The translations under genes were made by a program, and so were the position numbers. Of a stretch of 64,000 nucleotides of DNA, positions 27,579-29,905 are shown one piece after another (the first letter of the stretch is position 1; the number at the start of each line of letters is the position of its first letter). The stretch lies in NCBI GenBank assembly GCA_041530395.1, contig CP136945.1, forward strand, positions 310,001 through 374,000, given 5' to 3'. Under the pieces are notes generated by a model that had not been told where the DNA came from, ran no database searches, and saw nothing but the letters and a program-made list of their open reading frames with translations. Origin of the DNA: Thermosynechococcaceae cyanobacterium Okahandja (GTDB taxonomy: Bacteria; Cyanobacteriota; Cyanobacteriia; Thermosynechococcales; Thermosynechococcaceae).

Positions 27579-28273
27579 CACCACAAATCCGCGATTACAT
27601 TAATCACTAGCCCAACGATAACGCTATAGAAAAAGAACGACACAATTTGGTGGAAGAGCACAAGGCGGCGAATGCGGCGCTCCTCGATAGCCACATCGGA
27701 CGTTTGGGAGGTCAGGCTAATCGTAAAGGAAAAGTACATAAAGTCAAGGTAATCGGGTTCCCCTTCCCCCGGAAAGTCAAGACCGCCAGCATAACCAAAA
27801 TCGTTTAGGGTATGGTAGTTGTCATCGTAATAGTAGCGAGCATACTGTAGCGCAAAGGAGGTATGGGTTAAAAACCATGCCCCAATGACGGCCCATGTAG
27901 CCAAGCTCACCTGTAAGGTCAGCAGTGGATCGTTCGGCACTTTGGTATCCGCCAACAGTAAGCCGGTGGCCACAATGCTGGCAACAGCGGTAAACACAAC
28001 TAGCACCAGAATCGTCAGAGCCTTGGGTTCCCCCACCTGCGATCGCCGTTGGGTTTGCAGGCTATTGACACTGGCAATCATCTTGAGCAGCAAGAGCAGG
28101 TAGCTGGTAATGCCAACATCCCAAGCAAAGAGAAATCGCTGCCCTAAATTGACCCAACCAGATGTTAGGGCAAGGGCCATGACAGCTAAGAGGATGGCAA
28201 GCATCAGGCGCATCCCCACGTGAAGCTGATCAATCCATTCGCTAATTTGGCTAAGGCGCATACCCCTCAGCAT
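27578..28273 (-). CDS. DUF1345 family membrane protein
   Basis: 231 residues with about five membrane segments (around residues 22-42, 50-66, 88-108, 122-142 and 208-228) and the family signature DFMYFSFTISLTSQTSDV. Function unknown. An alternative ATG lies at 28261. The transposon with tnpB ends only about 10-20 nt upstream of the start, so its native promoter has probably been displaced; expression may depend on the element or on sequences inside its end. Confidence 0.85.
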   Translation of the reverse strand: MLRGMRLSQISEWIDQLHVGMRLMLAILLAVMALALTSGWVNLGQRFLFAWDVGITSYLLLLLKMIASVNSLQTQRRSQVGEPKALTILVLVVFTAVASIVATGLLLADTKVPNDPLLTLQVSLATWAVIGAWFLTHTSFALQYARYYYDDNYHTLNDFGYAGGLDFPGEGEPDYLDFMYFSFTISLTSQTSDVAIEERRIRRLVLFHQIVSFFFYSVIVGLVINVIADLW

Positions 28274-28420
28274 ACTCTCTGGCAGGATGAACTACCCCAC
28301 CGCACAGGCGGATGGGGTTTCTAAGACCCCAGATTCCACCGTAGCAGAGGATTTCCGTCTCTTCTTCTGCCCTAGTTGCTTCATCGAACCCGTATGCTTA
28401 CGAGTCTCTGAAGTAGAGCT
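28262..28420 (-). ncRNA. Predicted omega-RNA scaffold with guide
   Basis: Inferred by analogy with other TnpB elements: the RNA spans the 3' end of tnpB and the right-end hairpin, and the first ~16-22 bases outside the element act as guide. Here that guide would begin near TCCTGCCAGAGAGTATGCTG, just upstream of and into the DUF1345 start. The 5' limit is arbitrary. Confidence 0.4.
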
Positions 28421-29905
28421 AAGACATCCAAGACTAACGAGGGTCGTTCCAACCCCCAGTTGCTGATTCGTTGCAACGTTGTACATCACCATCGCAGCTC
28501 CCTTGTCTCTGGAAACCTCAAAACCACAGTCAGAACAAACGTGGTAACGATTGCCAAGTTCAGCCCATTCTTTGTGAACGGCTCCACACTTAGGACAACG
28601 CTGCGATGGTTTGATTTCGCGTGTTGGAAGCTGCAACACCAACCCACCTTTCTCCTCAATCTTGTACGAGAGCATCCTGTTGAGAATCCCAAAACCGACC
28701 GAGAGAATCGATTTGTTGAGTCCTGCTTTTTGCTTCCTCCGCTGACTTCCTTTCTTTGCAGCACGGGTCATCCCTTTCGTATTCAGCTTTTCAGTCACTC
28801 CGATGTCATAACGACGTGCAATCTCTGAAGTAACTTTGTGTTGCCAGTCTGTACGCTGACGTGCAACCTTAGCTTTTAGATTAGATTCCCGTTTGTTGAT
28901 TTTCCGCCAACGACGTGAAGCCTTGACCCCTTTCTTTGGAGCGCGTTTCCGTCGTTTTTGTTTGGCAACTTTGCGAACTTGCTCTTCATTTTTATGGGTG
29001 AAACGAGGATTTTCGATTTCCTCAAAGTTAGACCCATCAAACAACGTCAGAGCCGTTTCAGTCCCCAAGTCATAGGCCACAATCGACTGATACGACAGTT
29101 CAGACTCAGAGCCAAACTTCGGTGCGGGGGTGACAACCTCAACAGTGAATGATGCAAACCACTGGTGCTTGGACGGCTTGTAGACAATGGTTAGGGTCGT
29201 TGGAGTCCCCCAATGTTTTGCCTTTCCGCGCATCTTGACGGTGATACCCAAATCATTCAGCTTCACCGTTCCATGCTTGCCAGTGCTGTCAACTTTCCAT
29301 CCAGACTTTGCAGGATACCCCCATCCTGAGTATTTGCGAATCGATTTGAATTTTGGCTTACCGTGCAATCCCTTGAAGAATGACTGGTATGCCAAATCAA
29401 CTCGTTTCACCGTTGATTGCAGTGCTTGCGAGTGCAGCATTGCAAATTCTGGCCATTCCGCCTTAAAGGCGGGCAGGAGATTTTGCTGGTCAAAGTAGGT
29501 AATCGTCTTGCGATGATGCTTATACTCGAATTGACGATGCGAGATACAAGCATTGTAGAGATAACAGTGCAAACGACGTGCCGCAAACAAGGCTTTTTCT
29601 TGCGCCTTGTTTGGATACAGTCGAAATGTCTGTCTTCTCGTTACCACAAGATGATTTCCTTGACCTAGTGCTGACTCGATATTTGCAACTACAATGAATA
29701 TAGCACATTTTTTGGGACTGACTAGAAATCGATATGACTTAGCGGCATGATTCTAAGTGCATCATTTCTTGTGGAGGTGCGCTGCTAGAGACTGTCAAAG
29801 AGTATATTCAAAGTCAATCCGGTGGGAGAGCGTAAGAGATTAGGGCTTGCGCCCTGTCGCTATCCATCCCCACCGTGTAGACGGATGGGGAATTCCGCGA
29901 GAAGA
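28284..29905 (-). mobile_element. IS200/IS605-group element with tnpB only (IS1341 type)
   Basis: A tnpB gene is flanked by two subterminal hairpins read in the same orientation on the minus strand: CCCCATCCGTCTACACGGTGG plus GGG at the left (about 29868-29890) and CCCCATCCGCCTGTGCGGTGG plus GG at the right (about 28295-28318). Same-orientation end palindromes are typical of the IS200/IS605 group. No tnpA is present, so it could move only with help in trans. Exact ends are estimated: the right end probably near TTCA at 28284-28288, the left near GTTAAC at 29906-29911. Confidence 0.75.
28292..29647 (-). CDS. tnpB: RNA-guided nuclease TnpB (IS200/IS605 OrfB)
   Basis: 451 residues. N-terminal wedge region (FRLYPNKAQEKAL), then a RuvC fold with apparently intact acidic residues: D193 in YDLGTE, E286 in VTEKLN, D381 in SRDKGAAMVMYN. 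The zinc-ribbon cysteines C351/C354 and C371/C374 (CPKC, CSDC) are present. TnpB proteins cut DNA guided by a right-end RNA and favour transposon retention. The RuvC-III motif reads SRDKGAA where DRDxNAA is usual. The last ~15 codons and the TAG lie inside the right-end hairpin, where the guide-RNA scaffold is expected. Reading frame undamaged. Confidence 0.92.
   Translation of the reverse strand: MVTRRQTFRLYPNKAQEKALFAARRLHCYLYNACISHRQFEYKHHRKTITYFDQQNLLPAFKAEWPEFAMLHSQALQSTVKRVDLAYQSFFKGLHGKPKFKSIRKYSGWGYPAKSGWKVDSTGKHGTVKLNDLGITVKMRGKAKHWGTPTTLTIVYKPSKHQWFASFTVEVVTPAPKFGSESELSYQSIVAYDLGTETALTLFDGSNFEEIENPRFTHKNEEQVRKVAKQKRRKRAPKKGVKASRRWRKINKRESNLKAKVARQRTDWQHKVTSEIARRYDIGVTEKLNTKGMTRAAKKGSQRRKQKAGLNKSILSVGFGILNRMLSYKIEEKGGLVLQLPTREIKPSQRCPKCGAVHKEWAELGNRYHVCSDCGFEVSRDKGAAMVMYNVATNQQLGVGTTLVSLGCLSSTSETRKHTGSMKQLGQKKRRKSSATVESGVLETPSACAVG

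What the first reader, a model, noticed from the sequence alone, without database searches (positions are those of the whole stretch)
28262..29905. Apparently active TnpB with a readable guide pointing at its own insertion site
RuvC Asp193/Glu286/Asp381 and four zinc Cys are intact; the right-end hairpin lies within the last codons. The bases outside the right end (TCCTGCCAGAGAGTATGC...) would be the guide, spanning the DUF1345 start. The RuvC-III motif SRDKGAA departs from DRDxNAA. No tnpA, so it may be maintained by TnpB-driven homing alone.
Basis: partly seen in the sequence, partly recalled or inferred. Interest (0 to 1): 0.65.

Follow-up and report, generated by a model that had tools for sequence, protein, structure and literature searches.

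The report
tnpA-deleted IS605 element with TnpB guide
This is a jumping-gene copy that has lost its own jumping enzyme but still carries an intact-looking RNA-guided DNA cutter (TnpB) and the RNA that aims it at the site where the copy sits; it is a well-preserved example of a known kind, with sister copies elsewhere in the same genome that can still supply the missing enzyme.

Summary
Window 28287-29905 (-) is a complete 1,619-bp IS200/IS605-type element with an intact 451-aa TnpB: D193/E286/D381 and the CxxC..CxxC zinc cysteines align with ISDra2 TnpB. Eleven full copies in this genome fix the ends: TTAAC|TCTTCT... and ...GGGGTAGTTCAT|flank. Comparison of 23 loci gives an omegaRNA scaffold with three covarying helices plus an invariant CUAC:GUAG pairing; TTAAC as TAM recurs in nine further cyanobacterial loci.

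The proposal that it persists by TnpB homing alone is not supported. The copy is a tnpA-deletion derivative. Four sister copies carry a full-length tnpA ORF, though only one keeps the HUH motif. Five other copies share one identical tnpA deletion at five unrelated TTAAC sites, so tnpA-less forms spread in trans (or by recombination).

SRDKGAA is a clade-wide DxG variant that keeps the catalytic Asp. The family is absent from ten congeners. An uninterrupted relative locus was seen for one sister copy, but not for the window's site, where synteny is broken. Nuclease activity is inferred, not shown. Ordinary biology, unusually readable.

The parts
28287..29905 (-). whole element, 1,619 bp, left end at 29905, right end at 28287
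   Evidence: ends defined by alignment with 11 other copies in the genome
29906..29910 (-). TTAAC, left cleavage site and presumed TAM (outside the element)
   Evidence: TTAAC before the left end in all 12 copies and in nine further cyanobacterial loci
29868..29890 (-). left-end subterminal hairpin CCCCATCCGTCTACACGGTGGGG
   Evidence: DNA fold z -3.7; conserved in the copies
29740..29877 (+). tnpA remnant (divergent), C-terminal ~41 codons with 2 stops; internal deletion of about 312 bp, junction about 29743/29744
   Evidence: protein match of intact TnpA to G000:C1:339740-339877; alignment with full-length copies
28292..29647 (-). tnpB, RNA-guided endonuclease, D193/E286/D381, C351/C354/C371/C374
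28441..28455 (-). covarying 6-bp hairpin at the 5' side of the omegaRNA region
   Evidence: helix 1, three pairs with changes on both sides
28287..28425 (-). omegaRNA scaffold (about 139 nt) overlapping the 3' end of tnpB; long helix 28419-28425 with 28369-28375; pseudoknot strand 28414-28416 with 28292-28294
   Evidence: covariance model R1 finds this locus at 183 bits
28295..28317 (-). right-end terminal hairpin, inside the last tnpB codons
   Evidence: covarying helices 4 and 5; DNA fold z -3.8
28267..28286 (-). predicted guide, CCTGCCAGAGAGTATG (16 nt) to ...CTGA (20 nt), outside the element
   Evidence: directly 3' of the conserved right end; no other copy of TTAAC+guide in the genome
27578..28273 (-). 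right-flank gene, DUF1345 protein, first ATG 13 nt after the element
   Evidence: PF07077 8e-52

Best explanation
The locus is a non-autonomous, tnpA-deleted copy of a multi-copy IS200/IS605-family element whose ends, omegaRNA and TnpB are intact. Inferred working: the 3' part of the tnpB transcript is processed into a ~139-nt omegaRNA scaffold plus a ~16-20-nt guide read from the right flank (CCTGCCAGAGAGTATG...). TnpA supplied in trans by a sister copy peels the element out at TTAAC and TTCAT. The resealed donor joint TTAAC-CCTGCCAG... is then the matching target; TnpB cuts it, and repair from the sister chromosome restores the element. The element's ends, target motif and omegaRNA structure are shown by comparison; tnpA supply in trans, cleavage and repair are inferred from ISDra2 work.
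For: Twelve copies share the same ends and TTAAC. omegaRNA covariation: 95.1% of cells paired against 82.8% in shuffles, 56 cells with changes on both sides against 15, 0/500 shuffles as high, slid controls 32-54% paired. TnpB homology and triad, fold match to the ISDra2 TnpB-omegaRNA complex 8h1j, E 1.7e-22 (medium-confidence model). Purifying selection. Four full-length tnpA ORFs of Y1_Tnp type in the genome. Same tnpA deletion in five copies at different sites. A congener carries the homologous region of sister copy L002 without the element. Donor-joint cleavage and trans mobilisation of tnpA-deleted ISDra2: PMC8612924 and PMC2806898.
Against: No expression or cleavage data. The RuvC-III motif lacks the Asn of DxNAA; the effect on rate is unknown. 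Three of the four full-length TnpAs have His to Tyr in the HUH motif, so TnpA supply may rest on one copy (830472-830912). This copy's flanks are unlinked in the congeners examined, so its original site is not proven contiguous.
Confidence: 0.8

Rival explanations
1. The element is maintained by TnpB homing alone, without any TnpA.
For: The copy has no usable tnpA of its own; all 11 full copies keep tnpB open while tnpA is broken in seven.
Against: Identical tnpA deletion at five unrelated sites needs TnpA in trans or recombination; full-length tnpA genes present. Homing restores one site; it cannot explain spread.
Confidence: 0.1
2. The copy is a relic: ends, guide and TnpB look intact only because it is young, and TnpB no longer cuts (a variant RuvC-III site).
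For: RuvC-III reads SRDKGAA where ISDra2 has DRDENAA; within-genome dN/dS of 0.34 is only moderately low.
Against: D-E-D invariant in 16 homologues; DxG(A/S) is shared by the whole 62-82%-identity clade across genera, with dN/dS 0.11-0.15; omegaRNA structure maintained by compensatory changes.
Confidence: 0.12
3. Flanks come from two different former insertions, joined by recombination between copies, so the guide no longer matches the left-flank TTAAC site and targets a joint that never existed intact.
For: Left-flank gene and DUF1345 are unlinked in G003, where the homology to each flank stops within about 28 bp and 12 bp of the element; flanks of some other copies are unlinked too.
Against: The relatives' neighbours of the left-flank gene or of DUF1345 are not found within 1.5 kb of another copy in this genome (one search places one about 5.5 kb from copy L010); heavy gene shuffling in the genus explains the same pattern.
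Confidence: 0.2

Closest known systems
ISDra2 (IS200/IS605 family, Deinococcus radiodurans) TnpB-omegaRNA
   Same: DED RuvC triad, CCCC zinc finger, omegaRNA from the tnpB 3' end and right end with ~16-nt guide from the flank, pentanucleotide 5' target site that doubles as TAM, pseudoknot between right-end bases and a loop near the omegaRNA 5' end, trans mobilisation of tnpA-deleted forms (for the window: inferred)
   Different: TAM TTAAC not TTGAT; right end TTCAT; longer C-terminal tail (451 against 408 aa); omegaRNA scaffold about 139 against 116 nt; RuvC-III DxG; window copy lacks tnpA; many copies per genome
tnpB-only IS200/IS605 derivatives (IS1341 group; from memory, not tested against ISfinder)
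   Same: tnpB present, tnpA not usable
   Different: tnpA deletion with a remnant, and tnpA-bearing sister copies in the same genome
TldR (domesticated, nuclease-dead TnpB regulators)
   Same: TnpB fold, omegaRNA-like guide
   Different: here the catalytic triad and transposon ends are intact and the element is multi-copy
cyanobacterial IS607 TnpB / pro-Fanzor
   Same: cyanobacterial host range, TnpB superfamily
   Different: window protein has DLG and canonical RuvC-II Glu; sister copies carry a Y1-type tnpA, not a serine recombinase

Membership tests
TnpB RNA-guided endonuclease | OrfB_IS605 and TNB domains, guided_TnpB model | tested here: met
TnpB RNA-guided endonuclease | RuvC D-E-D triad and CxxC..CxxC zinc finger | tested here: met
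TnpB RNA-guided endonuclease | conserved omegaRNA structure at the right end | tested here: met
TnpB RNA-guided endonuclease | guide-directed DNA cleavage | not testable with these tools
   needs biochemistry
IS200/IS605 element | subterminal hairpins at both ends, fixed 5' target motif, no terminal inverted repeats | tested here: met
   hairpins and TTAAC
IS200/IS605 element | insertion without target duplication, seen as an uninterrupted site in a relative | tested here: inconclusive
   sister copy L002 against G003 is uninterrupted, but TTAAC itself is diverged there; window site not comparable
IS200/IS605 element | Y1 HUH transposase tnpA (needed only for an autonomous member) | tested here: not met
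   only a remnant in the window copy, so it is filed as a non-autonomous derivative; met in sister copy L006
TldR | loss of RuvC catalytic residues | tested here: not met
   triad intact
pro-Fanzor (IS607 TnpB) | DPG RuvC-I motif with repositioned Glu | tested here: not met
   DLG and E286 65 residues before the first zinc Cys (criteria PMC10711439)

The most novel reading that the evidence does not exclude
A cyanobacterial TnpB clade with an altered RuvC-III motif (DxG) in which elements shed tnpA, or even tnpB, while keeping the omegaRNA. The 13 near-identical omegaRNA loci in this chromosome (two without a tnpB of their own) could then act as one pool, any TnpB copy guarding all 13 sites.
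Probability: 0.3. Interest if true: 0.5.

Novelty: new member of a known kind. Interest (0 to 1): 0.3.

Why it matters
It gives a cyanobacterial TnpB clade with exact ends, TAM, guide and a covariation-supported omegaRNA, ready to test. The mix of full, tnpA-less and omegaRNA-only copies in one chromosome makes it possible to test whether TnpB retention works in trans between copies, and whether the DxG RuvC-III variant cuts DNA.

Tried and rejected
Rfam search of the locus gave only chance matches, so no Rfam family covers this omegaRNA at threshold. The uninterrupted form of the window's site was sought in ten congeners with joined flanks: none. Recombination between copies was tested by placing relatives' neighbour genes in this genome: none lies within 1.5 kb of another copy; the single 69-bp match of G001 to copy L010's flank is too short to weigh. 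An alternative pairing AUGAA:UUCAU is 97% paired but has no covariation. A literature search for Thermosynechococcus with TnpB found nothing; that host genus is my guess from gene content, not established. A deep mutational scan paper on ISDra2 TnpB did not mention N363 in its main text, so the effect of the DxN to DxG change could not be read off.

Full report
What is there. The window lies at G000:C1:310001-374000 of a 2.82-Mb complete genome. The ORF at 28292-29647 (-) encodes a 451-aa TnpB. Its D193, E286 and D381 align with D191, E278 and D361 of ISDra2 TnpB (residue roles from PMC10097598), and are invariant in an alignment of 16 homologues, as are three of the four zinc cysteines; the fourth is nearly so. 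An AlphaFold model of medium confidence (pLDDT 73) has the ISDra2 TnpB-omegaRNA complex as its best PDB match.

Ends. The same genome holds ten more full-length copies (94-98% identical proteins) and a 345-bp derivative. All twelve end in ...GGGGTAGTTCAT and begin after TTAAC with TCTTCT; the flanks beyond are unrelated. This places the window element at 28287-29905 and its guide at 28286 downwards: CCTGCCAGAGAGTATG. TTAAC also precedes the left end in nine related loci, most of them in other cyanobacterial genera, whose bases just inside the end differ, so it is a site motif, not part of a shared copy. The 22-bp TTAAC+guide does not occur elsewhere in the genome with up to 3 mismatches; the single match is the element's own right border.

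omegaRNA. Aligning the last 180 nt before the right end from 23 loci gives a hairpin, a long-range helix and the terminal hairpin, all with compensatory changes, plus an invariant three-pair CUA:UAG pairing (extendable to CUAC:GUAG) between the loop of the long helix and the bases next to the guide. Invariant pairs do not by themselves prove pairing; the position resembles the pseudoknot of ISDra2 omegaRNA, in which bases -5 to -3 pair with a segment near the omegaRNA 5' end (PMC10097598). A covariance model finds 13 such loci in this genome: the 11 tnpB copies and two without tnpB.

tnpA. Four copies have a full-length divergent Y1 transposase ORF; one has a frameshifted one. Only the copy at 830472-830912 has the H-V-H motif; the other three read Y-V-H, whereas the relatives have H-V-H or H-I-H. 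Copies L002, L003, L005, L008 and L010 share an identical 233-bp deletion inside tnpA; the window copy has a separate, larger deletion of about 312 bp. tnpA-less left ends also occur in L049, L053 and L148, judged by the short distance from left end to tnpB. In ISDra2 a tnpA/tnpB-deleted derivative is excised when TnpA is given in trans, and TnpB alone gives none (PMC2806898). Hence the window copy should be mobile in trans while a sister TnpA works.

Selection and the RuvC-III motif. Within the genome mean dN is 0.021 and dS 0.064; against three other cyanobacterial lineages at 79-82% identity dN/dS is 0.11-0.15. RDxG(A/S), with variants, replaces DRDxNAA in all copies here and in all homologues above about 60% identity; homologues near 50% have DRDVNAA or xRDIAAA-type motifs. 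Whether it changes cutting is unknown.

Origin. None of ten congeners has a close relative of this TnpB (best 41% over a fragment, otherwise about 30%), while a genome of another family has one at 77%: recent arrival and expansion is the simplest reading. At the site of copy L002 the relative G003 has the homologous region uninterrupted, though the TTAAC itself is diverged there. For the window copy this could not be done, since its left-flank gene and DUF1345 are apart in every congener that has both.

Mechanism. Shown: ends, target motif, guide position, omegaRNA structure, intact TnpB, tnpA-bearing sister copies. Inferred from ISDra2 (PMC8612924): omegaRNA processing, cutting of the donor joint and restoration by recombination. 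Because the scaffolds of all 13 loci are nearly the same, one TnpB could use any of the guides; this is a prediction.

Verdict. A genuine, well-preserved tnpA-deleted IS605-type element with TnpB; a new member of a known kind. The homing-alone idea is not supported.

Noticed in passing
G000:C1:2205558-2205902 (L012) and about 1838690-1838960 (L021, L194): Two short elements keep both ends and the omegaRNA but no usable tnpB; each would supply its own guide in trans.
   Followed up: partly
L004, L007, L011 (tnpA at G000:C1 32069-32509, 1113371-1113811, 660369-660809): Full-length tnpA with His to Tyr in the HUH motif (DYVH instead of DHVH), probably inactive; only L006 keeps HVH.
   Followed up: partly
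window 28271-28286: The guide part overlaps the leader of the DUF1345 gene, 13 nt after the element; processing of the tnpB transcript could affect DUF1345 expression.
   Followed up: no
L013-L018 and others: At least half a dozen further, distantly related TnpB genes (27-31% identity) in the same chromosome.
   Followed up: no
L010, left flank at G000:C1:714359-714558: The flank reads like the C-terminal part of a PIN-domain (VapC-like) gene that may be interrupted by the element; by eye only.
   Followed up: no
window about 29830-29850, near the element's left end: The window copy carries a 15-bp insertion near its left end that none of the other ten full copies has.
   Followed up: no
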